In this document: piece by piece, positions 22,824-38,734 of the stretch
How positions within the stretch are numbered: position 1 is the first letter of the stretch
Layout of the letters: every line of letters begins with the position of its first letter
DNA from: Spirochaetaceae bacterium 4572_59
GTDB taxonomy: Bacteria > Spirochaetota > Spirochaetia > DSM-2461
Direction: 5' to 3'
Assembly: GCA_002084805.1 (NCBI GenBank)
Contig: NBMC01000011.1
Span: forward strand, 1 to 61,864
DNA length: 61,864 bases
Program-made: the position numbers and the translations under genes
Notes under the pieces: model-generated
The model's input: the letters and a program-made list of their open reading frames with translations, nothing else
What the model was told of the DNA's origin: nothing
Database searches by the model: none

Positions 22824-22858
22824 TTTACAAATCTCTCATGTCCTATTATCATACAATA
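22824..22858 (+). promoter_or_regulatory. Promoter and GntR-type operator of the transaldolase operon
   Basis: TTTACA (22824-22829), a 17-base spacer and TATCAT (22847-22852). The sequence CTATTATCATACAATA (22843-22858) covers the -10 box. The same 16 bases occur inverted at 27855-27870 before the GntR gene, and the 15-base core occurs with one change at 33917-33931 before iolB. A repressor bound here would block RNA polymerase. Confidence 0.7.
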
Positions 22859-22913
22859 CGACAATAAGAAAATATAATATACTTATAATATGAAAATAAT
22901 CAGGAGAGTAATG

Positions 22914-23987
22914 ATGAGTGAAGTAATGAGTCATTTGAAGAAATCTGTAAATCTGTGTGATATGGAAATATGGAATGATTCCTGTTCCATAGAGGAATTG
23001 AACTATGCCATTGGCCATGGTGCTTCCGGTGCAACTACCAACCCCGTAATTGTTTTGAACGTTCTGAAACAGGAAATGCATCTGTGGAAAGACAGAATTC
23101 TTGAAATCATCAAAGATGAGCCCAAAGCGTCTGAAGTTGATATCTCCTGGAAAGTTATCGAAGAGATGGCCGTTAAGGGTGCTTCTATTCTGAAACCTGT
23201 TTTTGATGAAACCAAAGGTAAAAAAGGTAGAATCTCCATTCAGACCAATGCTCAGCTCTACCGCGATGCTCAGGCCATGACAGAACAGGCTATCAAGTTC
23301 AACAAACTGGCTGACAACATGATGGTGAAAATGCCTACAACCGCAGCCGGGATCAAAGCTTTCGAAGAAGCTACATACAATGGTGTTAATATCAATGCTA
23401 CCGTTAGTTTTACTGTTCCTCAGGCGGTTCAGGTTGCTGAAGCCGTAGAAAGAGGACTGAAAAGAAGAGAAGCTGAAGGAAAAGACATCTCCTTTCTGAC
23501 TCCTGTTTGTACCATCATGGTAGGCCGTCTTGACGATTGGCTGAAAATTGTTGCTGCCAGAGACAAAATCGCTGTTACTCCCGGTGTTCTTGACTGGGCC
23601 GGTGTTGCTGCCTTTAAAAATGCCTACAGAATCTACAAAGAGAAGGGTTATAGAACCAGACTTCTTTCTGCCGCTTACAGAAATCACCTGCACTGGTCTC
23701 AGCTGATTGGTGATGATATTGTTCAGACTATCCCCGCTAAATGGCAGAAACTGTACAATGCCAGTGATATCGAACCTGAAGTAACCATCAACAAGCCTGT
23801 CGATCCTGCTATTATGGATGAATTGACAAGGCTCTTTCCCGAATTCGTAAAAGCTTACGAACCTGATGGAATGACTCCTGAAGAATTTGTCTCCTATGGT
23901 GCTACCGCAAGAACCCTGAGAGGATTCCTTGCCGGTTATTCTGAACTGCTCGCAGTTGTCAGAGACCTTATGGTCCCCAATCCCTAA
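22914..23987 (+). CDS. Transaldolase-family protein, proposed to cleave 2-deoxy-5-keto-gluconate
   Basis: A 357-residue TIM-barrel protein of the transaldolase family. I chose ATG 22914 because GGAG (22903-22906) is 7 bases away. Aligned by eye to E. coli TalB, the Schiff-base Lys is K139 (VKMPTT), the first Asp is D22 (IWNDS), TTNP is at 41-44, N161 and T163 match N154 and T156, and R205 (MVGRLDDW) matches phosphate-binding R181. TalB E96 is replaced by Q110 (RISIQTN), as in fructose-6-phosphate aldolase (FSA). F178 is replaced by M202. It heads an operon with an acylating aldehyde dehydrogenase and a carboxyltransferase, under the operator shared with iolB. I infer that it splits DKG from IolB into malonate semialdehyde and a dihydroxyacetone unit. 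A housekeeping pentose-phosphate role is possible but fits the context less well. Confidence 0.85.
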   Translation: MSEVMSHLKKSVNLCDMEIWNDSCSIEELNYAIGHGASGATTNPVIVLNVLKQEMHLWKDRILEIIKDEPKASEVDISWKVIEEMAVKGASILKPVFDETKGKKGRISIQTNAQLYRDAQAMTEQAIKFNKLADNMMVKMPTTAAGIKAFEEATYNGVNINATVSFTVPQAVQVAEAVERGLKRREAEGKDISFLTPVCTIMVGRLDDWLKIVAARDKIAVTPGVLDWAGVAAFKNAYRIYKEKGYRTRLLSAAYRNHLHWSQLIGDDIVQTIPAKWQKLYNASDIEPEVTINKPVDPAIMDELTRLFPEFVKAYEPDGMTPEEFVSYGATARTLRGFLAGYSELLAVVRDLMVPNP

Positions 23988-24018
23988 GCATAAGAAAAAA
24001 AACAGGAGTTAGATAAAT

Positions 24019-25398
24019 ATGTCAGATTATATTAATGGCTTAATGGCTAGAGCCCGTAAGGCTCAAGCTGAAATAGAGTTTTTATCCCAGGAAAAAGTAG
24101 ACCAGATTTGCGAGACCATCGCCTGGGATGCCATTCAGGAACCCTTCGTTACGGAACTGTGTGAGTTGGCTGTAGAAGAGAGTGGAATGGGTGATTTCAA
24201 AAGTAAGTACAGCAAAATGATGAATAAAAGCCGTGGCGGCTGGTTTGATATGAAAGGCAAAAAGTCTGCTGGTGTTATCGAAGAAAACAGTGAACTGGGA
24301 CTGATTAAAATAGCTAAACCTGTTGGTGTTATCGGTGCCATGGTACCCTGTACCAACTGTGAAGCAACACAGGTTCTCAAATCCATGAGTGCTCTGAAAA
24401 CACGGAATGCTATTATTCTTGCACCCCATCCCCGGGGAATCAAAACTAACAAAATGGTTATTGACAGAATGCGCTCTGTTCTGAAATCCATGGGCTATCC
24501 TGAGGACCTGATCATACATATGGCAGAGGTTACCATGGACAACTCACAGGAACTGATGAAACAGTGTGACCTCGTTCTGGCAACAGGCGGAGGCGGACTG
24601 GTAAATGCTGCTTATACAAGTGGAACTCCCGCTTATGGTGTTGGTGCGGGTAATGCTGTAACCATCATCGATGATACACAGGATCTGGCAGAAGTTGCCG
24701 ATCAGATCAAACGATCCAAAACTTTTGATCAGGCCACCAGCTGTTCCGCAGAGAACGCCTGTCTGATTCAGGAAGAAATTTATGAAGATATGCTGAGGGC
24801 TCTCGAAGCTGAAGGCGGATACCGCTGCAGTGCCGAAGAGAAAGCAAAACTCCAGAACGCCATGTGGCCTGATGGAAAAGCGCTTAATCGTGCTATCGTT
24901 GCTCAGCCTGCTGCAACAATCGCCTCTATTGCAGGAATCGATATTCCAGAAGGTACATGCTTCTTTTTTGTAGAGGAAACAGGAATCGGAGCAGATTTTC
25001 CTTTTTCAGGTGAAAAATTGTCCGTTGTAACTACCATTTACAAATGGAGCAACTTTGATCAGGCTGTAAAAATGGTAAATGATATAACCACCTACTCCGG
25101 TGCGGGACACTCCTGTGGTATTCATACCACTAAAAAGGAAAGAATCCTGCAACTGGCAGAACAGGTTAAGGTTTCCCGCGTTATGGTTAACCAGCCTCAG
25201 TGTCTGGCAAACAGCGGTGCCTGGACCAATGCCATGCCTGTTACCCTAACTCTGGGATGTGGTTCCTGGGGAGGAAATATCTCTAGTGAGAATATCACCT
25301 GGAAACACTTGATGAATACAACCTGGGTATCCTCTCCTATAGCGAACCGTCAGCCCTCTGACGAGGAGTTATTCAGTGAAAGTGTTAGAAAAGCCTAA
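24019..25398 (+). CDS. CoA-acylating aldehyde dehydrogenase (PduP/AdhE-N type)
   Basis: A 459-residue NAD- and CoA-dependent dehydrogenase that turns an aldehyde into an acyl-CoA. The N-terminal Rossmann part has the acylating-family block KPVGVIGAMVPCTN, LKTRNAIILAPHPR and the cofactor glycines LATGGGGLV and GVGAGN. The catalytic Cys is C242 in ATSCSAEN. It is not an IolA/MmsA-type decarboxylating enzyme, which has a different nucleotide-binding region. It follows the transaldolase gene by 31 bases, behind an AGGAG ribosome site. I infer that malonate semialdehyde is its substrate and malonyl-CoA its product. Sulfo- or hydroxy-aldehydes are alternatives. Confidence 0.88.
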   Translation: MSDYINGLMARARKAQAEIEFLSQEKVDQICETIAWDAIQEPFVTELCELAVEESGMGDFKSKYSKMMNKSRGGWFDMKGKKSAGVIEENSELGLIKIAKPVGVIGAMVPCTNCEATQVLKSMSALKTRNAIILAPHPRGIKTNKMVIDRMRSVLKSMGYPEDLIIHMAEVTMDNSQELMKQCDLVLATGGGGLVNAAYTSGTPAYGVGAGNAVTIIDDTQDLAEVADQIKRSKTFDQATSCSAENACLIQEEIYEDMLRALEAEGGYRCSAEEKAKLQNAMWPDGKALNRAIVAQPAATIASIAGIDIPEGTCFFFVEETGIGADFPFSGEKLSVVTTIYKWSNFDQAVKMVNDITTYSGAGHSCGIHTTKKERILQLAEQVKVSRVMVNQPQCLANSGAWTNAMPVTLTLGCGSWGGNISSENITWKHLMNTTWVSSPIANRQPSDEELFSESVRKA

Positions 25399-27013
25399 TA
25401 TGAAAAAACGTTCCAGATCGGAGAATCGGTCTGTTCCTGAAGAAGATAAACGGGAAATTCCAAAGGCTCACAGGGATGCTGTAGCCCATCTGGTCAAAAA
25501 GAAAGAATCCATGCTGGCCGGAGGGGGAGAGTCCCGTCAGGCTAAGCAGAGGGCCAAGGGAAAGAAAACCGCTCGAGAGAGAATTCATTTTCTGGCAGAT
25601 AAAGGCAGTTTTGTAGAGAATCAGCCTTATGTTAGCAGTCGGAGCGATGATTTCGGAATGGATAAAAAGAAGTTTTCCGGTGATGGAGTTATTTCAGGGA
25701 GCGTTCTTATTGAGGGCCGTCAAATTTGGCTGACCTCTCAGGACTTCACCGTCCTGGGTGGTTCTCTGGGAGAACAGCATGCAGAAAAGATAGCCAATGC
25801 ACAGATGAATGCCCTGAAAACAGGTAAACCCTTTGTGCAGATCAATGATTCCGGTGGAGCCAGGATTCAGGAAGGTGTGATGTCTCTGGAGGGTTACGGT
25901 AAAATTTTCAGAGCCAATACACTGGCTTCCGGTGTTATTCCTCAAATCTCTTTGATTATGGGACCATGTGCCGGTGGAGCTGCTTATTCTCCTGCTCTGA
26001 CGGACTTTGTATTTATGGTCGATAAGACCAGTCAGATGTATATAACCGGTCCCGATGTGATACGTGCGGTGACAGGTGAAAATGTTACTGGTGAAGCATT
26101 GGGTGGGGCGGAAGCCCATAACAGTAAAAGTGGTAATGCCCATTTTCGCTGTGCCTCCGAGGACGAGTGCCTGACCACTCTGAAGCGCTTGCTGTCCTAC
26201 CTGCCCTCTTCCAACAGGGAAGCGCCTCCCATTGTGGACTGTACGGATAATCCGAACAGGGACACGGGAGAAATTCTCCATATTCTACCGGATAAGGCGA
26301 ATAAACCCTATGACATAAGGAAAGTGATCGATCTTGTTTTTGATCAGGAGAGCTTTCTGGAGGTTCATAAGGAATTCGCTGCCAGTATGGTTGTGGGATT
26401 TGCCCGCCTGGCGGGACGGACTGTCGGTGTTTATGGAAATCAGCCGATAGTCTTTGCCGGTTCACTGGACAAGGACTCCTCCGACAAGGCTGCACGGTTT
26501 ATCCGTTTCTGCGATGCCTTCGGTATTCCTCTTGTCTCCCTTGTGGATGTGCCGGGTTATATGCCAGGAACGGTTCAGGAATATGGCGGTATTATTCGCC
26601 ACGGTGCTAAGCTGCTTTATGCGGTAGCAGAAGCAACGGTTCCGAAAATTGCCCTGGTCTTAAGGAAAGCCTATGGTGGTGCCTATATTGGTATGGCTTC
26701 TAAGGCTTTAGGTTATGATCGGGTTCTGGCTCTTCCTACGGCAGAAATTGCCGTTATGGGGGCAGCTGGAGCAGCAAATATTATTTTTAGAAATGATATT
26801 AATGCGGCCCGTGATCCTGACTTGATCCGTGAGATCAAAATCCATGAGTATCAGGAGAAGTTTATGAATCCCTTTGCGGCGGCTTCTCAGGGTATTGTTG
26901 ATGATGTTATTGCGCCGGAAGCTATTCGTCAGGAGTTGGTCCGGTCTGTAGAAATGATGGCGGGTAAGATGGAAGATCTGCCCCGTAAAAAACACGGGAA
27001 TATACCCCTTTAA
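25376..27013 (+). CDS. Biotin-dependent acyl-CoA carboxyltransferase subunit (MmdA/PccB family)
   Basis: A 545-residue carboxyltransferase with two crotonase-like halves. Landmarks are GKKTARERI near the N-terminus, FVQINDSGGARIQEGV, MGPCAGGAAYSPALTDF (first oxyanion hole), LVDVPGYMPGTVQEYGGIIRHGAKLLYA and AYGGAYIGMASKALGYD then LPTAEIAVMGAAGAANI (second). GTG 25376 follows GAGGAG by 7 bases and overlaps the dehydrogenase gene by 23 bases. ATG 25400 is the other candidate. These subunits move CO2 between biotin and acetyl-, propionyl- or methylmalonyl-CoA. Here it may decarboxylate malonyl-CoA to acetyl-CoA. Biotin-carrier and membrane or acceptor subunits are not in the window and must be shared from elsewhere. 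Confidence 0.9.
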   Translation: MKVLEKPNMKKRSRSENRSVPEEDKREIPKAHRDAVAHLVKKKESMLAGGGESRQAKQRAKGKKTARERIHFLADKGSFVENQPYVSSRSDDFGMDKKKFSGDGVISGSVLIEGRQIWLTSQDFTVLGGSLGEQHAEKIANAQMNALKTGKPFVQINDSGGARIQEGVMSLEGYGKIFRANTLASGVIPQISLIMGPCAGGAAYSPALTDFVFMVDKTSQMYITGPDVIRAVTGENVTGEALGGAEAHNSKSGNAHFRCASEDECLTTLKRLLSYLPSSNREAPPIVDCTDNPNRDTGEILHILPDKANKPYDIRKVIDLVFDQESFLEVHKEFAASMVVGFARLAGRTVGVYGNQPIVFAGSLDKDSSDKAARFIRFCDAFGIPLVSLVDVPGYMPGTVQEYGGIIRHGAKLLYAVAEATVPKIALVLRKAYGGAYIGMASKALGYDRVLALPTAEIAVMGAAGAANIIFRNDINAARDPDLIREIKIHEYQEKFMNPFAAASQGIVDDVIAPEAIRQELVRSVEMMAGKMEDLPRKKHGNIPL

Positions 27014-27132
27014 TTTTCTGGTTTTAACGTTGTCAGCCCAAACTGCAGAGAGATCCTCCCGGGCGGGCAGCGGTTTTTTTTTACACTTAGAGCAGACGAA
27101 ATATGCCACTCTTTTTGCATATCATTAGCTAT

Positions 27133-27843
27133 TTATTTATTTATCTGAAGTCTGCTCTTTATATTCTCAATATGAGAGCTGAAGGTCTCGATGGAATGGT
27201 TTACCTGTCCATTTACAATGGTATCGATAATCTGCTGATGTTCCTTTACAATTTCACCGGGATCATTGTAATCACTCTGTGACTGAACAATCTCTTCATA
27301 CATAAAAGACTTAAGGGTTTTATAGATAGAGTAGAAGAGGCTGTTTTCCGTACTCTTAACAATTATATTATGGAAGTTATAATCCGCTTCTACCAGGTTC
27401 TCAGGTTTTCCCGAATCAAGGCTTTTTTTCATATGATTTACCTGATCCTGCAGTTCTGCAATAACTTCTGTATTACTCTCCGGATTTTCATTCTGTAGAT
27501 GGGTGAGAGTCATAATACTCCAGAGCTCTATGGCTCCTCTGGTTTCTATCAACTCCTGCTGTTCATCCTTACCAAGAAGAATAGACCAGGAAAGGGCTTC
27601 TGTTGATATATTGGCTCTGTCTGAAAGGAAGGTCCCTTTGGCAGCCTTGGATTCCAGTACGCCCAGGTAGTTGAAAATTTTTATGGCCTCTCTGATGGAG
27701 GAGCGACCAATTCCAAATCGCTCGGCAAGTTCGTTTTCTGTTGGAAGCTTATCTCCCGGTTTATATTTACCAGAAGTAATTAATTCTTTTATATGTTCCA
27801 TGACCTGTTCTACAACAGTTTTTTGCTTAATCTTTTTTACCAT
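27133..27843 (-). CDS. FadR-subfamily GntR transcriptional regulator
   Basis: A 236-residue regulator with an N-terminal winged helix (ELITSGKYKPGDKLPTENELAERFGIGRSSIREAI in pieces) and an all-helical FCD effector domain (about 90-230) whose D/H positions include EADYNFHNIIV and EHQQIIDTIVNG, the usual metal and carboxylate ligands. FadR-type regulators usually sense an organic acid or sugar acid. The gene converges on the carboxyltransferase gene and its own upstream region carries two tandem copies of the operator also found before the transaldolase and iolB genes. It is the best candidate for regulator of the lower inositol pathway. Confidence 0.92.
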   Translation of the reverse strand: MVKKIKQKTVVEQVMEHIKELITSGKYKPGDKLPTENELAERFGIGRSSIREAIKIFNYLGVLESKAAKGTFLSDRANISTEALSWSILLGKDEQQELIETRGAIELWSIMTLTHLQNENPESNTEVIAELQDQVNHMKKSLDSGKPENLVEADYNFHNIIVKSTENSLFYSIYKTLKSFMYEEIVQSQSDYNDPGEIVKEHQQIIDTIVNGQVNHSIETFSSHIENIKSRLQINK

Positions 27844-27854
27844 AAGAGTCCTCT

Positions 27855-27886
27855 TATTGTATGATAATAGTACATTATGATAATAG
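27855..27886 (-). promoter_or_regulatory. Tandem GntR operators upstream of the regulator gene
   Basis: On the minus strand two 16-base units follow each other: CTATTATCATAATGTA (27886-27871) and CTATTATCATACAATA (27870-27855). The second is identical to 22843-22858. They end 11 bases before the ATG, next to the AGAGGA ribosome site, so binding should give autorepression. The motif resembles a degenerate FadR-type site (TTGT-N3-AYAA read on the other strand). Confidence 0.65.
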
Positions 27887-27999
27887 AGTATTTAGAAGAA
27901 TTGAACAATAAGAAACATAGTTTTATGGAATAAAATTACGAAAGAATAATAGTTGATATCTGGAAATCCAGTTAAGCCATCGTCTTTGTGAAAACTACG

Positions 28000-28009
28000 C
28001 AAACGTTTG
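28000..28009. promoter_or_regulatory. LacI-type operator, upstream copy
   Basis: CAAACGTTTG is a perfect 10-bp palindrome with a central CG, typical of LacI/PurR-family sites. It sits about 200 bases upstream of a pair of related sites at 28201-28230, a distance that suits DNA looping. Confidence 0.5.
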
Positions 28010-28157
28010 TAGTAATACTACTAAATATTTATCGATAAATATAATTACTAATGGGATAAAGAAATTTATTATTACGACAACAGATATCAGCCGTAACTAT
28101 GTAAATAATTATCATTGAAGTAAATATGTAAATAATACCAATTTCAAAAAAAGAATC

Positions 28158-28230
28158 TTGACAGATTTGAAATTCAGGTACAATAATAAGATTATCATCG
28201 GAAACGTTTGCGTAAATACGCAAACGTTCC
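28158..28230 (+). promoter_or_regulatory. Promoter and paired LacI-type operators of the inositol ABC operon
   Basis: A perfect -35 TTGACA (28158-28163) precedes a possible TACAAT (28179-28184, short 15-base spacer). Downstream, GAAACGTTTGCGTA (28201-28214) and TACGCAAACGTTCC (28217-28230) form a 14-bp inverted repeat with one mismatch and a 2-base centre. Each arm contains an AAACGTT core, so two LacI-family dimers could bind side by side just downstream of the start of transcription. The likely regulator is encoded at 32852 at the end of the same operon. The rest of the 448-base gap (27844-28291) is A+T rich with no gene. Confidence 0.65.
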
Positions 28231-28291
28231 TATTAGAAAAATGACCCGGCAGGGGAATGCCGGTATTTGCCATTCGGCAGGAGGAGAATCT

Positions 28292-29230
28292 ATGAGAAAA
28301 TTTTTAGTATTGTTGATGATGATGACTCTTTTAACAGGAGCGGTATTTGCAGAAGGACAGCAGGAAGACGATGGTTTTAAAGTAGGTTACGTTTGTAATA
28401 ACTTTAACGATACCTTTCAGACTTATGTAATGGATGCAGCAGAAGCGTATTTCAATGGTATTGATGATTTTGAAATTGTGCTTCAGGACTCTGTAGAAGA
28501 TGTTATTCGTCAGCAGGATCTGGTTAATACATTGATTGCACAGAAAATTGATGCATTGATTGTTGTACCTGTAGACACAAGTGCTATGGGACCCATTGTG
28601 CGAGCAGCTGATGAAGCTGGAATTCCCCTTTGTTTTGTAAACAGAAACCCCTATGCAGATAAAACACTTCCTGAAAACGTATATTACGTTGGGTCTCAGG
28701 AAGTCATCGCTGGTCAGCAGCAGATGGAATACATGGGTGAGCTCTTGGACGGAAAAGGTGGAGTTGGTATTCTTATGGGTAAACTTGATAACGAAGGCGC
28801 TCTGAAAAGAACTGAGGGAAATGAATCCGTTATTGCAGATAAATACCCCGGAATCAAGATTCTTGCAAAAGAAACCGGTAACTGGCAGAGAGACCAGGGG
28901 ATGACCCTGACCGAAAACTGGATAACCGCATATGGTTCTGATCTGAATGGAATCCTGGCAAACAATGATGAAATGGCTCTTGGCGCTGTTGAAGCTTTGA
29001 AAGCCTCAGGAAGAGAAGATATCTTTGTAATGGGTGTTGATGCCATTCCTGATGCAAAAGGTGCTGTTGGAAACGGTACTCTGTCTGCAACTGTTTTGCA
29101 GGATGCTGTAGGACAGGGAGAAGGCGGAGCTAAAGTAATCCATAGTGTTCTTACAGGAAGTACTCCCGAAGCTATTACCTGGGTACCCTTTGTTCTTATC
29201 ACACCGGAAAATCTGGCTGATTTTCAGTAA
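28292..29230 (+). CDS. Sugar ABC periplasmic binding protein (inositol-binding, IbpA/RbsB-like)
   Basis: A 312-residue type I periplasmic binding protein with a signal peptide ending FAEGQQ. Typical segments are VGYVCNNFNDTFQTYV, QKIDALIVVPVDTSAMGPIV, AGIPLCFVNRNPY, LNGILANNDEMALGAVEAL and VMGVDAIPDAKGAV. ATG 28292 follows AGGAGGAG (28279-28286). A leader stem CCGGCA/TGCCGG (28246-28263) lies in the 5' untranslated region. It is first in an ABC operon that also encodes an IolG-like dehydrogenase and a LacI regulator, so inositol or an isomer is the likely ligand. This is inference, since the fold alone does not separate inositol from ribose. Confidence 0.88.
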   Translation: MRKFLVLLMMMTLLTGAVFAEGQQEDDGFKVGYVCNNFNDTFQTYVMDAAEAYFNGIDDFEIVLQDSVEDVIRQQDLVNTLIAQKIDALIVVPVDTSAMGPIVRAADEAGIPLCFVNRNPYADKTLPENVYYVGSQEVIAGQQQMEYMGELLDGKGGVGILMGKLDNEGALKRTEGNESVIADKYPGIKILAKETGNWQRDQGMTLTENWITAYGSDLNGILANNDEMALGAVEALKASGREDIFVMGVDAIPDAKGAVGNGTLSATVLQDAVGQGEGGAKVIHSVLTGSTPEAITWVPFVLITPENLADFQ

Positions 29231-29270: not shown

Positions 29271-29285
29271 TTTATGGAGGGATTT

Positions 29286-30803
29286 ATGGCAGAGGAAAAA
29301 TACATCCTTGAGATGACGGATATAGTTAAAACCTTTCCGGGTGTTAAGGCTTTAAAGGGTGTACAGCTAAAAGTACAAGCAGGGGAAATCCATGCCCTGA
29401 TGGGTGAGAACGGAGCAGGAAAATCCACGCTTATGAACTGTCTGGCAGGAGTTCATGGGCAAACTGCGGGAACCATCCTTTTTGATGGAGAAGTAAGAGA
29501 AAATTATAACACAATTCAGGCACTTGAAATGGGAATCTCCATGATTCACCAGGAACTGAGTCCTGTTCTTCACAGGCCTATTATGGAAAATATCTGGTTG
29601 GGAAGAGAACCTCTGAACAGATTCGGTCTGGTTGATCATCAGAAAATGTATGACATGAGTGTCAAGGTTCTGAAAGAGATCGATCTTGATGAAGATCCCC
29701 GAACCGAGATGGTAAACCTGACCGTTGCAAAAATGCAGATGATCGAAATTGCCAAGGCGGTATCCTTTGATTCTAAACTGATCATTATGGATGAACCTAC
29801 ATCAGCCCTGGCGGATAAAGAGGTCAAACAGCTTTTTACCATTATGCGAAAGCTTAAAGAAAGTGGTAAAAGCATTATATATATTTCTCATAAACTGGAT
29901 GAGGTTTATGAAATTACCGATAGGATCTCCGTATTCCGTGATGGTACGTATATCGGAACGGAAGATACGATAAAACTGAGTGAGGACAAACTTATTCAGA
30001 TGATGGTTGGGCGGGAAGTTAATGAACTGTTTCCCAAAGTCGACTGTCCTATCGGTGACGTAAAAATGGAAGTGAAGGGTCTGACCCACAACAGGTACTT
30101 CAAGGATGTCTCTTTTACAGTAAAAAAAGGGGAGATTCTGGGTATTGCCGGTTTGATCGGTGCGGGGCGGACTGAGGTTATCGAAACGATTTTCGGTATT
30201 CGTGAAAAGGTTAGCGGAGAAATCCTGATTGATGGCAAAGTTGTTAATATTGAGTCTCCCCGGGATGCTATTGCAAATCATATGGCTCTTCTGACAGAAG
30301 ACAGACGGCAGTCAGGTATTTTTCCCATGCTGTCAGTCCGTTTGAATATGGCTATTACCAACTTTCCAAAGTTTCTGAATAAGTTCGGTTTAATCCGGGA
30401 CAGAGACGTGAAGAAAGAGTGTGATGATTATGTAAAAAAGATTCAGGTTAAGACTCCCAGCTTAAATCAGAGAGTGGAAAATCTTTCCGGTGGAAATCAG
30501 CAGAAGGTTCTGGTTTCACGCTGGTTGATGACTAATCCTGAAATACTTTTCCTTGATGAACCCACAAGAGGTATTGATGTGGGTGCTAAATCTGAAATCC
30601 ACAGCTTAATTACACAATTGGCTGGTGAAGGAAAATCTATAGTGATGGTTTCTTCCGAACTGCCGGAAGTAATGGGAATGAGTGACCGTATCATGATAAT
30701 GCATGAAGGCAGGATCACCGGAATTGTTGAGAACCGGAAAGATCTGACTCAGGAAGAATTGATGACCTATGCTACTGGAAAAGCAGGGAAGAAGGGGGCG
30801 TAA
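29286..30803 (+). CDS. Sugar ABC ATPase, duplicated type (RbsA/MglA-like)
   Basis: A 505-residue protein with two fused ATPase domains, as in ribose, galactose and inositol importers. The first domain has MGENGAGKSTLMNCLAGV, a short signature region and LIIMDEPTSAL. The second has the degenerate Walker A GLIGAGRTEVIETIFG, then LSGGNQQKVLVSRWLM and LFLDEPTRGIDVGAK. I chose ATG 29286, which follows GGAGGG (29276-29281). An in-frame ATG at 29274 overlaps that site. It energises the importer with the adjacent permease. Confidence 0.93.
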   Translation: MAEEKYILEMTDIVKTFPGVKALKGVQLKVQAGEIHALMGENGAGKSTLMNCLAGVHGQTAGTILFDGEVRENYNTIQALEMGISMIHQELSPVLHRPIMENIWLGREPLNRFGLVDHQKMYDMSVKVLKEIDLDEDPRTEMVNLTVAKMQMIEIAKAVSFDSKLIIMDEPTSALADKEVKQLFTIMRKLKESGKSIIYISHKLDEVYEITDRISVFRDGTYIGTEDTIKLSEDKLIQMMVGREVNELFPKVDCPIGDVKMEVKGLTHNRYFKDVSFTVKKGEILGIAGLIGAGRTEVIETIFGIREKVSGEILIDGKVVNIESPRDAIANHMALLTEDRRQSGIFPMLSVRLNMAITNFPKFLNKFGLIRDRDVKKECDDYVKKIQVKTPSLNQRVENLSGGNQQKVLVSRWLMTNPEILFLDEPTRGIDVGAKSEIHSLITQLAGEGKSIVMVSSELPEVMGMSDRIMIMHEGRITGIVENRKDLTQEELMTYATGKAGKKGA

Positions 30804-31838: not shown

Positions 31839-32852
31839 ATGAAAAAAATTAAAATAGGTTCCGTCGGCCTGGGCCGGCTGGGACTGCAGCATGCTGAAAA
31901 TATTGCCACAAGGGTTATGAATGCAGAGCTGACAGCCCTGTGTGATCTGAATGAACCCCTTTTAAACGAAACCGCCGACAGGCTTGCTGTTACCCATCGC
32001 TGTAAAAGCTTTGAAGAGCTACTTGCTATTGAAGAACTGGATGCAATATCCATTGTATCTCCTTCAGGGCTCCATACCAGTCAAATTTCCGCTGCCTTAG
32101 CCGCGGGAAAACATGTTTTTTCCGAAAAACCTCTTGGTATAACAGTCGAGGAGTGTAAGGAAGCGGAAAAAGCTGTTGAAAAGTACTCGGAAAAGGTTTT
32201 TATGCTGGGTTTTATGCGCCGTTTCGATCCTTCCTATATGTATGCTCATAAAAAAGTAATGGCTGGAGAGATCGGTACACCCATTCTTTTCCGCTCCTAC
32301 AGTCAGGATCCCGAAAAGGCTATTGATGGAGCTATCGCTTTTGCCGGGCATAGCGGTGGTCAGTTTTTGGATATGGCTGTGCATGACATCGATCTGGCCC
32401 GCTGGTTTCTCCAGTCGGAGCCGGAAAATGTCACAGCCATGGGCGGCTGTTATGCTCATCCCGAGTTTGCCGAGTATAAAGATGGCGATAATGTCTCCTG
32501 TTTGATGAAGTTCAAGAATGATGCTATGGTCTTTCTGTTTGCAGGCCGGACGGCACCTCACGGTTACAATGTAGAAACTGAAATTATTGGAACCAAGGGT
32601 ATTCTCCGCATTGCTTCTGTCCCTCAGAAGAACCTTGTCGAAATCCTTGATAACAACGGGGTACGCCGGGAATGCAGCGAAAACTTTCTGGAACGTTTTG
32701 AGAGTTCCTATGTAAATGAGATGCAGGAATTCGTGGACTGTATTGTGGAAGGCCGGAAACCGAACGTTAGCGTTTATGACGGGACCAAGGTGTCCGAAAT
32801 TGCCTACAAATGCAAAGAGTCCTTCGAGACCGCTGTCCAATTGAGGTTTTAA
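31839..32852 (+). CDS. GFO/IDH/MocA oxidoreductase (inositol dehydrogenase type)
   Basis: A 337-residue NAD(P)-dependent dehydrogenase. The dinucleotide motif is GSVGLGRLGLQHA, the family EKP motif is FSEKPLG (Lys), and the catalytic Asp/His pair is in DMAVHDIDLARW. In the transport operon, one gene before the LacI regulator, it probably oxidises an inositol isomer taken up by the importer (for example scyllo- or D-chiro-inositol) to an inosose. A second enzyme of the same family is encoded at 37721. Which of the two acts on myo-inositol cannot be read from the sequence. Confidence 0.85.
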   Translation: MKKIKIGSVGLGRLGLQHAENIATRVMNAELTALCDLNEPLLNETADRLAVTHRCKSFEELLAIEELDAISIVSPSGLHTSQISAALAAGKHVFSEKPLGITVEECKEAEKAVEKYSEKVFMLGFMRRFDPSYMYAHKKVMAGEIGTPILFRSYSQDPEKAIDGAIAFAGHSGGQFLDMAVHDIDLARWFLQSEPENVTAMGGCYAHPEFAEYKDGDNVSCLMKFKNDAMVFLFAGRTAPHGYNVETEIIGTKGILRIASVPQKNLVEILDNNGVRRECSENFLERFESSYVNEMQEFVDCIVEGRKPNVSVYDGTKVSEIAYKCKESFETAVQLRF

Positions 32853-33877
32853 TGAAAAGCACCCAGGTCACCATCAAAGATATAGCGGAAATCGCCGGAG
32901 TCAGTTTTTCTACGGTTTCCCGTTCTCTCAACGGCAGTTCTCAAGTTTCTGAGAAAACCAGGAAAAAGATCTGCCAGATTGCGGATGATCTGGGATTTGA
33001 ATTCAATGCCGGTGCGAGGAGTATGATTACAAGCCGTGCCGGTACCGTGGGAATTATTCTTCCCGAACAATACACCCAGGTAAATGTTAATGTGTATCAC
33101 GGCATGCTGATGAACAGTCTCAGAACTTATCTGGAAAAAGCGGATGTAGATCTGATTGTCAGCTATCAGGAGAATCACTACAGTAAACAGAATAATATCA
33201 GACGTCTTATTAGCAGAAAAAAGGTAGACGGTTTTATTCTTCTTGTGGAACAGCTGAGTTCAGAAACTCTGGAAATTCTGAACTCCAGGGATTTCCCCTT
33301 TGTGTGTACTCACTTTCCTCCGGAAGCGGAAGTAAAAGATCAGGATGTTATCTTTTCAGATAACTATGTGGGTGGGCAGCTGGTTGCCGAGCATCTGCTG
33401 GAGCAGGGGAAAACGTCTTTCCTGCTGCTGGCAATGGAAGAACGTCATACTGAGTTTGAACTGAGAGAACGGGGATTTACGGAGACAGTGGAAAAGGCCG
33501 GTTATAAAGTATGCAGAATTAGCAGTAATTCGACATATGATGATGCCCGACTGAAGATGAGGGAAAATATTGCAGAAGCCCGGGGGAGTGATGCTCTGTT
33601 CGCAATCAATGATCTTATGGCCCTGGGAGCTATGCGTACCTTAAAAGAGGAAGGATTCAATATGCCCGGGGATATAGCCATAGTCGGTTATGATGACATT
33701 GAATTCGGTCGCTACAGTCATCCAGCTCTGACATCAATACATCAGCCCAGGGAAGAGCTGGCTCACATTTCCTGCGACAGACTCTTTATGCAGATGGAGA
33801 AAAATAAATTGGAAGAGGGATACCTTAAAAAACGCATCAGCATTCAGCCGGTTCTGATAAAACGGGAATCCTCATAA
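32852..33877 (+). CDS. LacI-family transcriptional regulator
   Basis: A 341-residue repressor with the LacI helix-turn-helix (VTIKDIAEIAGVSFSTVSRSLNG) followed by a sugar-binding type I PBP core (VGIILPEQYTQVN, ALFAINDLMALGAMR, IAIVGYDDIEFGRYSHPALTSI in pieces). ATG 32852 shares its A with the TAA of the dehydrogenase gene (TAATG), so the two are coupled. The likely sites are the AAACGTT palindromes at 28000 and 28201-28230 before this operon. An inositol-like sugar would be the inducer. Confidence 0.92.
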   Translation: MKSTQVTIKDIAEIAGVSFSTVSRSLNGSSQVSEKTRKKICQIADDLGFEFNAGARSMITSRAGTVGIILPEQYTQVNVNVYHGMLMNSLRTYLEKADVDLIVSYQENHYSKQNNIRRLISRKKVDGFILLVEQLSSETLEILNSRDFPFVCTHFPPEAEVKDQDVIFSDNYVGGQLVAEHLLEQGKTSFLLLAMEERHTEFELRERGFTETVEKAGYKVCRISSNSTYDDARLKMRENIAEARGSDALFAINDLMALGAMRTLKEEGFNMPGDIAIVGYDDIEFGRYSHPALTSIHQPREELAHISCDRLFMQMEKNKLEEGYLKKRISIQPVLIKRESS

Positions 33878-33894
33878 TTGGAGATAGAATTTAC

Positions 33895-33933
33895 TTGACA
33901 ATTAAACAGTATGCTTTATTATCAGACAATAAG
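33895..33933 (+). promoter_or_regulatory. Promoter and GntR-type operator of iolBDEG
   Basis: A perfect -35 TTGACA (33895-33900), a 16-base spacer and TATTAT (33917-33922). TATTATCAGACAATAAG (33917-33933) overlaps the -10 and differs by one base from the operators at 22844 and 27853-27869. More AAGATAATA repeats follow to 33946. Confidence 0.7.
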
Positions 33934-33969
33934 ATAATAAGATAATGAAATATAGTAAGGAGTTTAAAA

Positions 33970-34782
33970 TTGGTAGTACGAAATGAAAATAACTTCAAAT
34001 CCGCTTATACAGCCATCACAGAAGAAAATGGAAAACATGCGGAAATGCTGTTGGACTTTGGTCTGCTTAATTTAAAAGCAGGTGAAACCTGGAACTGTGA
34101 TGAGCAGAAAGAGAGAGCCTGGCTTCTGATTAAGGGGGAAGCAGTTGTTGAATGGGAAGGAAAAAACGAAACAATTAAACGGATTTCCTGTTTTGATGAA
34201 AGTCCTTCTGTACTTCATGTCCCCCAGGGTGTTTCTGTTAGCATCAAAGCAGTGAAAGATTCAGAATTTGCCGTAGAGAAAAAGATGAATACCAAACTTT
34301 TTGATTGTAAGCTCTACCGCCCGGAAGATGTCCGTAGTGATGTATTCGGTGCGGGAGTTATGAATGATACTTCCAGAAGAACTGTCCGGACAGTTTTTGA
34401 CGGTGAGATTGCACCCTATTCCAATATGGTAATGGGAGAAGTTATCAATCATCCCGGAAAATGGTCCAGTTATCCTCCTCACGATCATCCTCAGCCCGAA
34501 ATCTACCACTACAGACACTTTCCAGAGCAGGGATTCGGAGTTTCACTGATAGATGAGGACCCCTTTTTTGTTAAGAATGGTGATACCACACTTGTTCCCC
34601 CCAATAAAACACACTCTCAGGTAGCGGGAGCAGGTTATGCCATGTATTACATCTGGATGATACCTCATCTGGAAGATGATAGATGGCTCCCTTCAACACG
34701 CTACTTCAGAGAGGATCATAAATGGCTTACAGATCCGGATGTTAAAATCTGGCCCGAGCTAAAATACGGAGAGAAAAAATAA
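33970..34782 (+). CDS. iolB: 5-deoxy-glucuronate isomerase
   Basis: A 270-residue double-cupin enzyme that converts 5-deoxy-D-glucuronate to 2-deoxy-5-keto-D-gluconate. The metal-binding cupin motif is in the second half: [20 protein letters not shown] with two His and a Glu, then [20 protein letters not shown] with the last His. The start is TTG 33970, fixed by AAGGAG (33957-33962) with a 7-base spacer. It is the first gene of the iolBDEG operon and overlaps iolD by one base. Its product would be the substrate of the proposed transaldolase-like step. Confidence 0.93.
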
Positions 34783-36716
34783 TGGGAACAATAAGAATGA
34801 CCGTTGCCCAGGCTCTGGTAAAATTTTTGAATCAGCAGTATCTGGAGTTTGACGGGGATGAACACAAATTTGTAGAAGGAATATTTACTGTTTTCGGACA
34901 CGGCAATGTTCTTGGTCTGGGACAGGCTCTGGAAGAGGATCCCGGTACTTTAAAAGTTCATCAGGGAAGAAATGAACAGGGAATGGCTGCGGCAGCAATG
35001 GGATTTGCCAAACAGAATCACCGCCGTAAAATCTTTGCAGCGACCTCCTCTGTCGGACCTGGTGCCGCCAATATGGTAACTGCCGCCGCAACAGCCACAG
35101 CCAATCGGATTCCTGTACTCTTCCTACCGGGAGACACCTATGCAACAAGACAGCCCGATCCGGTTCTTCAACAAATGGAGCAGTTTCATGACCTGACGCT
35201 GACAACCAATGATGCCTTCCGTGCCGTAAGTAAGTACTGGGACAGAATCAACCGTCCCGAACAGCTTATGACTGCCATGATCAGTGCCATGCGGACTTTG
35301 ACCGATCCTGCTAATACCGGTGCTGTTACAATCTGTCTGCCTCAGGATGTTCAGGGAGAAGCCTACGACTATCCCGATTACTTTTTCCAGAAAAGGGTTC
35401 ACCGACTGGAAAGAACAGCACCGACCGATGCCATGATTACAGAAGCTGTCGCCATGATAAAGAAGAAGAAAAAACCCCTGCTTATCTGCGGTGGAGGTGT
35501 CCGCTACTCTGAAGCCGGACAGGAGCTGTTGAAATTCGCTGAAGAGTTTAATATCCCCTATTCTGAAACTCAGGCCGGAAAGAGTGCCACCCTCTACTCC
35601 CATCCTCTGAATGTCGGCGGGATCGGAACAACCGGTTGTCTGGCTGCCAATACACTGGGACAGGAAAGCGATCTTATTATCGCTGTGGGAACCAGATATA
35701 CAGACTTTACAACAGCATCAAAGTGGCTCTATCAGAATCCTGATGTGGATTTCGTTAATATCAATATTGCAAGCTTTGATTCCTATAAAATGGATGCCGT
35801 TCGTGTAACTGCCGATGCCAAAGCAGCCCTTATAGCTCTCCGGAAAGCTCTCAAAACGGAAAATTACAAATCCTCCTATACCACTGAGATTAAAGCTGCC
35901 AAAGAGGCATGGGATAAGGAGCTGGACCACCTTTTCAATCTGAAATATACAGGTCCCGGATTTCAGCCGGAAATCAATGACAGTCTGAATGATGCCATTG
36001 AAGAGTACAGCAAGTTTCTGGGGACAAAAATGACTCAGACCAGAGTTCTGGGAATTCTGGATGAAGTTCTGGATGACAGCAGTATCTGTGTCGGTGCCGC
36101 TGGTTCTCTTCCGGGAGACCTTCAGAGAGTTTACCGGGCGAAAAGCGAACGTTCCTACCATATGGAGTACGGTTACTCCTGCATGGGCTATGAAATCAAT
36201 GCCGCTCTTGGTGTCAAAATGGCCGAGCCGGAGCGTGAAGTTTACGCTTATGTGGGGGACGGTTCTTTTATGATGCTTCATTCCGAACTGGTGTCATCCA
36301 TTCAGGAGGGAATGAAAATCAATGTCATCATTTTTGACAATGTTGAGTTTGGCTGTATCAATAACCTGCAGATGGAGAGAGGACAGGGGAGTTTCGGAAC
36401 AGAAATGCGCCGCAGAAACAGCGCTTCAGGTAAGCTTGACGGAGAACTCCTTTATGTAGATTTTGCCAGAATTGGTGAGGGATACGGCTGTAAAAGCTAT
36501 ACAGTCAAGAATGAAGAGGAACTGAAATTCGCTTTGGAAGATGCAAAGAAGCAGACAGTATCCACGGTTATCGATGTAAAAGTTCTACCTAAAACAATGA
36601 CACACGGTTACGAAGGTTTCTGGCGATGCGGACAGTCTGAAGTGGCAAAGAATGCTTCTATCGTTGAGAAGACAGAAGAGATGAAAGCTGAACTGCATAA
36701 GGCAAGACAGTACTGA
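34782..36716 (+). CDS. iolD: 3D-(3,5/4)-trihydroxycyclohexane-1,2-dione hydrolase
   Basis: A 644-residue thiamine-diphosphate enzyme that opens the ring of the diketo-inositol to 5-deoxy-glucuronate. The N-terminal domain has the catalytic-Glu region ([20 protein letters not shown] in pieces), and the C-terminal domain has the ThDP motif GDGSFMML ending NVEFGCINN. The length is normal for IolD. It starts at the TAATG junction with iolB. The full set of blocks, including [18 protein letters not shown], makes the call firm. Confidence 0.95.
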
Positions 36717-36784
36717 TGTTGAAATAATATGATTTGAATCTCCCGGGATTACGTCGGAGAGCTTAAAAAATTGAGAGGAAAAAG

Positions 36785-37678
36785 ATGAATAAGGATTATG
36801 TAAAACTGGCCATGGCTCCCATAGGCTGGACCAATGATGATATGCCCGATCTGGGTGCTGAAAACACATTCGAACAGTGTGTTAGTGAGATGGCTCTGGC
36901 CGGTTATACCGGTTCTGAAGTGGGGAACAAATATCCAAAAGATCCATCTGTCTTGAAAAAGTATCTGGATATCCGGGATATACAGATTTGTAATCAGTGG
37001 TTCAGTTCTTTCCTGGCATCTCAGCCCTTTGAACAGGTTGAGAAGGACTTCAGGTCTCAGCTTAGCTTTCTGAAGGCTATGGGGGCGGATGTTATCGGAC
37101 CTTCCGAACAGACACGTTCCTGTCAGGGACAGCTTGAAGTTCCCATCTTTTCCGGTAAAGCCACATTCAACAGCGATGAGTTTCGAAGACTGACCGACGG
37201 TATGAACAAACTGGGGAATATTGCCAGGGAAGAGGGCATGAAACTTGCCTTTCATCACCATATGGGAACTGCTGTGCAGACCATGGAAGAGACCGAACGT
37301 TTCCTCAATGATACGGATCCCGATAAAGTCTACCTGCTCTTTGATTCCGGGCATTTCTCTTTTTCCGGTGAAGATCCCGTTAAGGCTCTAGAGAAATTCA
37401 TCAGTCGTGTCGGACATGTTCATCTGAAAGATATGAGAGATGATGTGTATGCAGAAGTTCAGAAGAAGAACTCTTCTTTTCTAGATGCGGTAAGAGATGG
37501 TGTTTTTACAGTTCCCGGTGATGGAAATGTAGATTTTCCTTCCATCTTTAAAATCCTTGAAGACAATAATTACAAGGGATGGATGGTTGTAGAAGCGGAA
37601 CAGGATCCAGCCAAGGCTAATCCTTTCGCTTATGCAAAAATGGCACGTGGTTATATTCGAAAACATACAGGAATCTGA
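36785..37678 (+). CDS. iolE: Inosose (2-keto-myo-inositol) dehydratase
   Basis: A 297-residue xylose-isomerase-like TIM barrel that dehydrates 2-keto-myo-inositol. IolE features are APIGWTNDDMPDLG at the N-terminus, AGYTGSEVGNKYP, the metal-site strands LAFHHHMGTAVQ and LLFDSGHFSFSGEDP, GHVHLKDMRD, and EAEQDP near the end. It lies 68 bases after iolD with GAGAGGA as the ribosome site. It supplies the substrate of IolD. Confidence 0.95.
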   Translation: MNKDYVKLAMAPIGWTNDDMPDLGAENTFEQCVSEMALAGYTGSEVGNKYPKDPSVLKKYLDIRDIQICNQWFSSFLASQPFEQVEKDFRSQLSFLKAMGADVIGPSEQTRSCQGQLEVPIFSGKATFNSDEFRRLTDGMNKLGNIAREEGMKLAFHHHMGTAVQTMEETERFLNDTDPDKVYLLFDSGHFSFSGEDPVKALEKFISRVGHVHLKDMRDDVYAEVQKKNSSFLDAVRDGVFTVPGDGNVDFPSIFKILEDNNYKGWMVVEAEQDPAKANPFAYAKMARGYIRKHTGI

Positions 37679-37720
37679 CCGCATCAGAACCTAGAAATAA
37701 AATAAAATGGGAGATTATTT

Positions 37721-38734
37721 ATGAAAAAACAATTAGTAATGGGAATTATCGGAGCTGGAAGAATTGGCCGGGTCCACGTAGAAAGTATCTGTACAAAAAT
37801 ACCGGGAGCCCGGGTTAAAACTCTGGCAGATCCCTTTATGAATGAAGAAACATCTCAATGGGCCGCATCCATGGGTGTGGGGAGCACAACAAAGGATTAC
37901 AAAGAAATCCTGAGTGACAGTGAAATCGATGCTGTTCTAATCTGTTCGCCCACGGATACTCATGCGCCAATTATTCGGGAAGCAGCTCTTGCTGGAAAAC
38001 ATATTTTCTGTGAGAAGCCTATCGATCTGGATATAGCGCGGATCAAAAAAACCCTGGAAATCGTCGAAAAAGCCGGAGTTAAATTCCAGATTGGATTTAA
38101 CCGTCGTTTTGATCACAACTTCAGAGCTATCCGCAACGCAGTTGAGGCCGGTAAAGTTGGTGAACCCCAAATTATTTCGGTGAAATCACGTGATCCTGAG
38201 CCCCCTTCAGCTGAATATGCCGCTGCCTCTGGAGGTATCTTTGTAGATATGACTATCCATGATTTTGATATGGTCCGTTATCTGAGCGGTAGTGAAGTTG
38301 AGGAAGTTTATGTACAGGGAGCCGTACTGGTAGATCCTGCCATCGGTGAAGCCGGAGATATTGATACCTGTATTATCTCTCTCAAGTTTGCCAGTGGTGC
38401 TATTGGTGTAATTGATAATTCCAGAAAAGCGGCTTATGGATATGATCAACGGGCGGAAGTATTCGGAAGCAAGGGATCTGTTGCAACAGCTAATGATAAT
38501 CCTTCCACTGCTGTCCTCAGTACCGCAGAAGGAATCAGTAGTGAAAAACCGTATTTTTTCTTTCTGGAACGCTATATGGAGTCTTTCACCCAGGAGATGA
38601 GAGAGTTTATTGCAGCTGTTCAGGATGATACTGAAACACCACTTGGTGGAATAGATGCTCTCAGGCCGGTTCAGATTGCTATGGCTGCCGGGGAATCTCT
38701 GAAAACAGGAAAACCCGTAAAAGTTCAGTATTAA
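37721..38734 (+). CDS. iolG: myo-Inositol 2-dehydrogenase
   Basis: A 337-residue NAD-dependent dehydrogenase, closer to classical IolG than the copy at 31839. It shows MGIIGAGRIGRVHVE (NAD motif), ICSPTDTHAP, FCEKPIDLD (EKP Lys) and GGIFVDMTIHDFDMVRY with the catalytic Asp and His. It is last in the iolBDEG operon, 42 bases after iolE, and is followed by a strong terminator. It catalyses the first step, myo-inositol to 2-keto-myo-inositol. Confidence 0.94.
   Translation: MKKQLVMGIIGAGRIGRVHVESICTKIPGARVKTLADPFMNEETSQWAASMGVGSTTKDYKEILSDSEIDAVLICSPTDTHAPIIREAALAGKHIFCEKPIDLDIARIKKTLEIVEKAGVKFQIGFNRRFDHNFRAIRNAVEAGKVGEPQIISVKSRDPEPPSAEYAAASGGIFVDMTIHDFDMVRYLSGSEVEEVYVQGAVLVDPAIGEAGDIDTCIISLKFASGAIGVIDNSRKAAYGYDQRAEVFGSKGSVATANDNPSTAVLSTAEGISSEKPYFFFLERYMESFTQEMREFIAAVQDDTETPLGGIDALRPVQIAMAAGESLKTGKPVKVQY

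What the first reader, a model, noticed from the sequence alone, without database searches (positions are those of the whole stretch)
22824..38734. Possible new inositol pathway with a transaldolase-like step in place of IolC, IolJ and IolA
Seen: iolG, iolE, iolD and iolB lead from myo-inositol to 2-deoxy-5-keto-gluconate (DKG), but no iolC kinase, iolJ aldolase or iolA gene is in the locus. A transaldolase-family gene, an acylating aldehyde dehydrogenase and a carboxyltransferase form an operon whose promoter carries the same 15-bp motif as iolB. Known: transaldolases move the three-carbon dihydroxyacetone end of a ketose to glyceraldehyde-3-phosphate, and the sulfo-TAL sulfoglycolysis pathway uses one to release a C3 acid-bearing aldehyde. 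Inference: DKG, read from its C6 end, is such a ketose. Cleavage between C3 and C4 would give malonate semialdehyde plus fructose-6-phosphate (or free dihydroxyacetone), removing the need for phosphorylation by IolC. I am not aware of a described inositol route of this form.
Basis: partly seen in the sequence, partly recalled or inferred. Interest (0 to 1): 0.93.

Follow-up and report, generated by a model that had tools for sequence, protein, structure and literature searches.

The report
Kinase-free inositol breakdown by transaldolase
A spirochaete inositol gene cluster lacks the usual kinase gene and carries a distinct transaldolase-family enzyme, found beside inositol genes in nine bacterial phyla, that is predicted to split the unphosphorylated inositol intermediate directly; if assays confirm it, this would be a new and widespread way for bacteria to eat inositol.

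Summary
In detail: a TAL-family gene, an acylating aldehyde dehydrogenase (ALDH) and an MmdA-type carboxyltransferase (22914-27013) share a promoter motif with iolB. The held genome (93.5% complete) has no iolC or iolA over cut-off and no DUF2090. In 80 of 80 relatives the TAL keeps the transaldolase catalytic residues and both phosphate-site arginines, but has Gln for Glu96 and Met for Phe178. It lies beside iolB/D/E in 39 of 80 loci (iolD/E in 31, nine phyla), with iolA in 25 and acylating ALDH in 7, never both, which points to malonate semialdehyde as product. Limits: 7 of 32 TAL genomes also have iolC; 25 of 80 loci show no marker gene; transfer to glyceraldehyde-3-phosphate versus free dihydroxyacetone is undecided. 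Second result: of 10 iolD-positive Spirochaetota with neither TAL nor an iolC match over cut-off, 9 carry a type II GAPDH-PGK pair, some with split transketolase, malate-racemase-like and malic-enzyme genes, suggesting a third, transketolase-based route. I found no paper on either route. All reactions are inferred.

The parts
22844..22858 (+). 15-bp motif TATTATCATACAATA in the TAL operon promoter, likely GntR operator
   Evidence: related sites beside some GntR genes in other loci, 7 of 17 places at or under 5 of 200 shuffles
22914..23987 (+). transaldolase-family protein (DKG transaldolase/aldolase, predicted); K138 Schiff-base lysine, Q109 at TalB Glu96, M201 at TalB Phe178, R204 and R255 at the phosphate site (residues counted from 22917)
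24019..25398 (+). CoA-acylating aldehyde dehydrogenase, SauS-like (predicted malonate semialdehyde to malonyl-CoA)
   Evidence: NF047625 530.7 bits, cut-off 600; Aldedh
25376..27013 (+). MmdA-type carboxyltransferase (predicted malonyl-CoA decarboxylating transfer)
   Evidence: TIGR01117 746.5 bits, cut-off 998.8; Carboxyl_trans
27133..27843 (-). GntR/FCD regulator
27855..27869 (-). 15-bp motif in the GntR promoter
28208..29230 (+). sugar-type ABC substrate-binding protein
29274..30803 (+). ABC sugar ATPase
   Evidence: sequence, by eye; not scanned
30807..31814 (+). ABC sugar permease
   Evidence: sequence, by eye; not scanned
31839..32852 (+). IolG (inositol 2-dehydrogenase)
   Evidence: TIGR04380 370.1 over 355
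32852..33877 (+). LacI-type regulator
   Evidence: sequence, by eye; not scanned
33917..33931 (+). 15-bp motif, one mismatch, iolB promoter
33970..34782 (+). IolB-like 5-deoxyglucuronate isomerase (divergent)
   Evidence: Pfam KduI/IolB 182; TIGR04378 93 of 205
34782..36716 (+). IolD
   Evidence: 946.4 over 715
36785..37678 (+). IolE
   Evidence: 412.8 over 290
37721..38734 (+). IolG
   Evidence: 473 over 355

Best explanation
This cluster encodes the upper inositol pathway (IolG, IolE, IolD, an IolB-like protein) with no iolC over cut-off in the held genome, and its transaldolase-family enzyme is predicted to cleave unphosphorylated 2-deoxy-5-keto-gluconate (DKG) between C3 and C4 through a Lys138 Schiff base, which would release malonate semialdehyde and likely pass the dihydroxyacetone unit to glyceraldehyde-3-phosphate to give fructose-6-phosphate. 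Malonate semialdehyde would then be turned into malonyl-CoA by the acylating dehydrogenase, and into acetyl-CoA and CO2 through the MmdA-type carboxyltransferase with a biotin carrier, in place of IolA. Shown: genes, searches without a hit, conserved residues, repeated linkage. Inferred: substrate, products, acceptor, regulation by GntR. The confidence below is for cleavage of DKG to malonate semialdehyde in either mode; given that, glyceraldehyde-3-phosphate as acceptor has about 0.6 and free dihydroxyacetone (first rival, a variant of the same core) about 0.4.
For: Own genome: no iolC or iolA over cut-off, no DUF2090. 80 fetched relatives: 39 with at least one of iolB/D/E by similarity to the window's proteins, 28 of them within 3 kb; with iolD or iolE 31 of 80, nine phyla (8 of the 39 have only iolB, some by weak matches). 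Among loci of 15 kb or more, 21 of 33 have iolB/D/E and 26 of 33 have iolB/D/E, iolA or acylating ALDH. iolA-like in 25 of 80, acylating ALDH in 7 of 80, both in 0. TIGR01722 over cut-off in 19 of 32 TAL genomes, within about 11 kb of the TAL in 15. iolC-like in 2 of 80 loci. 25 of 32 TAL genomes have no iolC over cut-off. Asp17, Thr33, Asn35, Lys132, Asn154, Thr156, Arg181, Arg228 of TalB conserved in 80 of 80. AlphaFold model mean pLDDT 96; the PDB matches listed are transaldolases and relatives. 16 of 32 TAL genomes hold a further TAL-family hit of about 25-34% identity, so this copy need not serve the pentose phosphate pathway there. Motif shared by TAL, GntR and iolB promoters. Established chemistry (no call): read from C6, DKG is a ketose whose alpha-beta bond is C4-C3, the bond that IolJ cleaves in the 6-phosphate.
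Against: 7 of 32 TAL genomes also have iolC over cut-off; in the genome of L066 the two genes start about 2.2 kb apart, and L047 also has both on one contig. Three of the 25 others (G396, G397, G399) have full-length PfkB hits of 208-228 bits under the cut-off of 300. TAL and iolC are not significantly exclusive in the 22 iolD-positive Spirochaetota (1 both, 6 TAL only, 5 iolC only, 10 neither; Fisher p 0.62). 25 of 80 loci show no iolB/D/E/G, iolA, ALDH or CT, some on short contigs, and the TAL-ALDH-CT unit also occurs without iol genes in the fetched stretch (L032, L046, L087), so other substrates are possible. TalB Glu96 is Gln and Phe178 is Met in 80 of 80, unlike E. coli TalB. It is the only PF00923 match in the window's own genome, so a housekeeping role there is not excluded. 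IolB scores under its cut-off.
Confidence: 0.75

Rival explanations
1. Variant of the same core: the enzyme is a DKG aldolase, not a transferase; it cleaves DKG to malonate semialdehyde and free dihydroxyacetone, which a separate kinase phosphorylates.
For: Gln at TalB Glu96 in 80 of 80 is the residue of fructose-6-phosphate aldolase (Gln59); swapping the residues that organise the catalytic water interconverts aldolase and transaldolase (PMC13259622 passages, citing Stellmacher 2015, which I did not read). Engineered TalB E96Q, TalB E96Q/F178Y and T. acidophilum E60Q/F132Y structures appear among the fold matches. FGGY kinases lie in 5 of 80 TAL loci (two of the five confirmed by Pfam).
Against: No dihydroxyacetone kinase among the recurrent neighbour clusters that I looked at (not an exhaustive scan). 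Met, not Tyr, at the Phe178 position. The Arg pair of the acceptor phosphate site is invariant, though it could hold the DKG carboxylate instead.
Confidence: 0.3
2. It is the ordinary pentose-phosphate transaldolase, placed in the cluster by chance.
For: Only PF00923 match in the own genome.
Against: iol linkage in nine phyla; Glu96 and Phe178 changed in 80 of 80; 16 of 32 TAL genomes hold another TAL-family hit; no NCBIfam transaldolase model reaches its cut-off (best 118.8 of 367).
Confidence: 0.05
3. The TAL serves another keto acid; inositol linkage reflects a side role or several substrates within one family.
For: Loci with the TAL-ALDH-CT unit and no iol genes in the fetched stretch (L032, L046, L087), and 25 of 80 loci with none of the marker genes.
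Against: iol-linked members occur in most parts of the tree; the upper pathway of this cluster ends at DKG, whose structure fits.
Confidence: 0.12
4. A divergent PfkB kinase and the class II aldolase elsewhere in the genome run the classical IolC/IolJ steps.
For: 11 PfkB matches and one class II aldolase exist; about 6.5% of the genome may be missing.
Against: Best iolC score 107 against 362-391 for the six Spirochaetota of the sample over the cut-off; aldolase classed as FBP aldolase; neither lies in the cluster.
Confidence: 0.08

Closest known systems
Classical iol pathway (IolG-E-D-B-C-J-A), Bacillus subtilis, Salmonella
   Same: Same upper steps to DKG; same predicted C3 product, malonate semialdehyde
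   Different: No IolC or IolA over cut-off and no DUF2090 in the held genome; C-C cleavage predicted before any phosphorylation. PMC9430895 (passages) counts iolC among four core genes
IolC-DUF2090 fusion aldolase (PMC9007349, passages)
   Same: An alternative C-C cleaving enzyme for the inositol pathway
   Different: That route still phosphorylates DKG; here another protein family and no kinase found; DUF2090 absent
Sulfo-TAL sulfoglycolysis (SqvA; PMC12890257 passages)
   Same: Transaldolase moves a dihydroxyacetone unit of an anionic ketose to glyceraldehyde phosphate and frees an anionic aldehyde
   Different: Substrate would be the carboxylate made by IolB, not sulfofructose; the window TAL is long (about 357 aa), the PDB chain named BmSF-TAL (8bc3) is 226 aa
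E. coli TalB and FsaA
   Same: Same fold family, Schiff-base Lys, Asp, Asn, Thr
   Different: Mixed active site: Gln as in FSA, Met in place of Phe178, Ala in place of Ser226
SauS sulfoacetaldehyde dehydrogenase (acylating) and MmdA
   Same: Best-scoring families
   Different: Both under their curated cut-offs

Membership tests
Transaldolase/FSA family (PF00923) | family profile over cut-off | tested here: met
   148.6 bits, cut-off 27
Transaldolase/FSA family (PF00923) | Schiff-base Lys132, Asp17, Asn35, Thr156 (TalB numbering) | tested here: met
   window and 80 of 80 loci
Classical transaldolase (TalB type) | Glu96 organising the catalytic water | tested here: not met
   Gln in window and 80 of 80
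Classical transaldolase (TalB type) | NCBIfam transaldolase cut-offs | tested here: not met
   best 118.8 of 367
Classical transaldolase (TalB type) | acceptor phosphate site Arg181, Arg228 | tested here: met
   window and 80 of 80
Fructose-6-phosphate aldolase | Gln59 and Tyr131 | tested here: inconclusive
   Gln kept; the TalB Phe178 equivalent is Met; FsaA Tyr131 is not placed reliably in my alignment
Classical iol pathway | IolD, IolE, IolG | tested here: met
   over cut-offs
Classical iol pathway | IolB | tested here: inconclusive
   Pfam met, TIGR04378 93 of 205
Classical iol pathway | IolC kinase | tested here: not met
   best 107 of 300, genome 93.5% complete
Classical iol pathway | IolA | tested here: not met
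   best 26 of 448.5
Classical iol pathway | IolJ or DUF2090 aldolase | tested here: inconclusive
   no DUF2090; one class II aldolase, classed as FBP aldolase
Sulfo-TAL | activity on sulfofructose with glyceraldehyde-3-phosphate | not testable with these tools
   needs assay
Na+-pumping methylmalonyl-CoA decarboxylase | MmdA cut-off | tested here: not met
   746.5 of 998.8
Na+-pumping methylmalonyl-CoA decarboxylase | beta subunit (OAD_beta) and biotin carrier in the genome | tested here: inconclusive
   one OAD_beta on contig C1 next to an ORF that reads, by eye, as an OadA with a biotinyl end; not beside the MmdA-type gene

The most novel reading that the evidence does not exclude
DKG is a hub with three interchangeable exits in Spirochaetota: kinase-aldolase (iolC), transaldolase (this window) and transketolase. 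In the third, a split transketolase would move C5-C6 of DKG to glyceraldehyde-3-phosphate, giving xylulose-5-phosphate and (R)-malate semialdehyde; a type II GAPDH and a PGK homologue would oxidise that carboxylate analogue of glyceraldehyde-3-phosphate to D-malate with ATP formed, a nickel-dependent malate racemase would give L-malate and a malic enzyme pyruvate. Both kinase-free exits would mirror sulfo-TAL and sulfo-TK.
Probability: 0.55. Interest if true: 0.93.

Novelty: new variant of a known kind. Interest (0 to 1): 0.86.

Why it matters
A large survey treats iolC as one of four core inositol genes, calls three of four a cluster, and puts a missing fourth down to incomplete sequence, assembly errors or frameshifts (PMC9430895 passages); here the gap would be a real alternative. 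A kinase-free cleavage in nine phyla would change how inositol and phytate carbon flow is predicted, would give a function to a large transaldolase subfamily that the listed sources name only 'transaldolase' or 'transaldolase family protein', and would extend the sulfo-TAL/sulfo-TK logic of group transfer to a carboxylated sugar. The acylating ALDH plus carboxyltransferase would keep the energy of malonate semialdehyde oxidation as malonyl-CoA.

Tried and rejected
Paper searches for a transaldolase or transketolase inositol route listed no paper that I could recognise as describing one; only open-licence PMC papers are held, and of the listings I opened only what follows. Passages seen: PMC12130570 (its transaldolase is talB of the pentose phosphate pathway), PMC9007349, PMC9430895 (no occurrence of transaldolase or Spirochaet-), PMC12838507 (none of the five terms asked), PMC3962226, PMC4012138, PMC12890257, PMC13259622. 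One search gave nothing of use; one search gave the engineering papers.

Rejected: ordinary pentose-phosphate transaldolase and hidden iolC (see rivals). A mutual-exclusion test of TAL against iolC failed (Fisher p 0.62) and is not used as support. My first residue table used TalB numbers off by one; one search replaces it.

Motif conservation beside GntR genes elsewhere is mixed: of 17 GntR places tested, 7 were at or under 5 of 200 shuffles (L038, L042, L054, L135, L136, first place in L139 and in L143), one at 6, the other 9 not; L115 and L134 are the same genome as L031.

Results against the transketolase route: split transketolase was seen in the fetched stretches of only 4 of the 9 genomes (G364, G369, G375, G291), LarA-like in 6 of 9 plus a contig-end piece in G074, malic enzyme in 4 of 9; PGK adjoins GAPDH-II in 9 of 9. 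Six of the 15 GAPDH-II genomes have no iolD over cut-off, and one of them (G246) has GAPDH-II, PGK and split transketolase together, so that trio is not tied to inositol alone. G074 has two iolC pieces of 157 and 143 bits at contig ends that may be one broken iolC; counting it as iolC-positive the exclusion of GAPDH-II from TAL-or-iolC genomes still has p 2e-4. G385, G162 and G024 have full-length PfkB hits of 228, 195 and 177 bits under the iolC cut-off, but these match the iolC proteins of the sample only at 87-130 bits. G024 has none of the three.

Full report
What is there. The window (contig C88 of a 3.29-Mb, 93.5% complete assembly) reads: TAL-family gene, CoA-acylating aldehyde dehydrogenase, MmdA-type carboxyltransferase, GntR (reverse), ABC sugar transporter (three genes), iolG, lacI, iolB-like, iolD, iolE, iolG (ATPase, permease and LacI by eye). 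The nearest named TAL relatives are spirochaetal. IolD, IolE and both IolG pass NCBIfam cut-offs; the IolB protein does not (93 of 205) but is KduI/IolB by Pfam. The shared motif is real and also stands in front of the GntR gene, which makes GntR the likely regulator of both operons and of itself (inference).

What is missing. In the genome, no iolC or iolA reaches its cut-off and there is no match to the IolC-fused DUF2090 aldolase. There are 11 PfkB matches, the best at 107 of 300 bits against the iolC model, and one class II aldolase that classifies as fructose-bisphosphate aldolase. The TAL is the only PF00923 match in the genome.

The TAL subfamily. The protein search scored 8000 candidates, its cap, and all passed; 455 relatives were confirmed in GTDB 220 contigs, of which the best 80 were kept. 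Against E. coli TalB and FsaA, Asp17, Thr33, Asn35, Lys132, Asn154, Thr156, Arg181 and Arg228 are conserved in 80 of 80; Glu96 is Gln, Phe178 is Met and Ser226 is Ala in 80 of 80. The model (mean pLDDT 96) matches transaldolases (3clm, TM 0.83 over the query). So it is a Schiff-base enzyme of the transaldolase fold with an acceptor-anion site and an altered acid-base residue. Gln at this place is the aldolase (FSA) letter; the FSA literature ties the residues that hold the catalytic water to the choice between aldolase and transaldolase (passages of PMC13259622), and Phe178Tyr alone gives TalB aldolase activity (passages of PMC3962226 and PMC4012138). Sequence alone therefore does not decide between transfer and free dihydroxyacetone. 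I favour transfer because no recurrent dihydroxyacetone kinase was seen among the neighbour clusters I looked at (not exhaustive) and because the other kinase-free exit proposed below, a transketolase, must use an acceptor.

Linkage. By similarity to the window's proteins, 39 of 80 TAL loci carry at least one of iolB/D/E (28 of 80 within 3 kb): Acidobacteriota 8, Spirochaetota 7, Pseudomonadota 5, Myxococcota 4, Bacteroidota 4, Bacillota 3, Chloroflexota 3, Planctomycetota 2, Fusobacteriota 1, two without an assigned phylum. Leaving out the 8 loci with iolB alone, some of them weak matches, 31 of 80 in the same nine phyla remain. An iolA-like gene is in 25 of 80, acylating ALDH in 7 of 80 and no locus has both. 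In whole genomes, 32 of 47 examined have a TAL at 50% identity or more (25 of them were picked because a TAL locus was known); of these 32, 19 have iolA over cut-off, 15 within about 11 kb of the TAL, and 7 have iolC over cut-off. On a quick tree, the 44 rows labelled iol need 22 changes (shuffled mean 29.5; 3 of 500 shuffles as low), so the label is somewhat clustered but occurs in most branches (one duplicate row was labelled otherwise). That two ways of oxidising malonate semialdehyde alternate beside one TAL is the best indirect evidence that malonate semialdehyde is its product. Against this, 25 of 80 loci show none of the marker genes (several are short contigs), and of the four loci with TAL, ALDH and CT together three show no iol genes (L032, L046, L087).

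Chemistry (established knowledge, no call). DKG read from C6 is CH2OH-CO-CHOH-CHOH-CH2-COO-; the bond between its alpha and beta carbons is C4-C3, the bond IolJ breaks in the 6-phosphate. By Fischer projection the two carbinols match the 3S,4R pattern of fructose. Retro-aldol gives dihydroxyacetone (as enamine) and malonate semialdehyde. With glyceraldehyde-3-phosphate as acceptor the product is fructose-6-phosphate; one ATP is then spent by phosphofructokinase instead of IolC, so the ATP balance is unchanged.

A sample not chosen by TAL. Among 392 Spirochaetota, 21 have IolD over cut-off, and one more (G144) has 629 bits of 715 on a cut contig. Of these 22: TAL only 6, iolC only 5, both 1, neither 10. 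TAL and iolC are not significantly exclusive by themselves (p 0.62). But the ten with neither are mostly not empty: in G369 and G375 a split transketolase sits between a GntR gene and iolG, where G256 has the TAL (families checked on the G375 genes), and others have a type II GAPDH and a PGK homologue after iolE or iolG. Type II GAPDH is over cut-off in 15 of 392 genomes: 9 of the 22 iolD-positive and 6 of the 370 others (Fisher p 4e-9), 0 of the 12 with TAL or iolC and 9 of the 10 with neither (p 2e-5; 2e-4 if G074, which has two iolC pieces at contig ends, is counted as iolC-positive; not corrected for kinship). PGK adjoins GAPDH-II in 9 of 9; LarA-like racemase (best model malate racemase, 399 of cut-off 500, for the one protein tested against NCBIfam) is seen in 6 of 9, malic enzyme in 4 of 9 and split transketolase in 4 of 9; in G291 all six genes stand in a row. 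One GAPDH-II genome without iolD over cut-off (G246) also has PGK and split transketolase beside it. The reading as a transketolase route through malate semialdehyde is my inference; by Fischer projection the semialdehyde would give D-malate, which fits a malate racemase.

Verdict. I found no paper that describes the TAL or the TK route (open-licence PMC only, mostly judged from listings).

Noticed in passing
L135:4135-5972, L136:14286-16126, L146:12371-16493, L178:5150-11748, L138:12521-18302, L141:12400-16059, L145:5057-9000, L132:4331-6777, L176:9986-13839: iol clusters or genomes of Spirochaetota with split transketolase, type II GAPDH, PGK, LarA-like racemase and malic enzyme in varying sets: possible third inositol route.
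   Followed up: partly
L184:8337-12470: Type II GAPDH, PGK and split transketolase together in a 1.4-Mb Spirochaetota genome without IolD over cut-off.
   Followed up: no
L046:5160-11071 and L087:1-5303: TAL-ALDH-CT unit in loci without iol genes, beside zinc-ADH-like genes (by eye), in L046 a split transketolase: the module may serve other substrates.
   Followed up: partly
L042:11940-15960: TAL locus with FGGY kinase, an ADH-like gene and a GatZ/KbaZ-like protein downstream, no iol genes in the locus.
   Followed up: no
window 18404-20758 and 20851-21384: Two adjacent reverse ORFs read like pieces of one beta-galactosidase (784 and 177 aa), possibly split by a frameshift (by eye).
   Followed up: no
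window 38839-39446: Short ORFs that look like remnants of a hybrid histidine kinase (by eye).
   Followed up: no
window 27990-28240: Three copies of AAACGTT in palindrome-like settings upstream of the transporter, possibly LacI operators (by eye).
   Followed up: no
L155:10000-13500 (genome of L066): An iolC gene (682-aa frame, long enough for an IolC-DUF2090 fusion, not tested) lies close upstream of the TAL: both routes side by side.
   Followed up: partly
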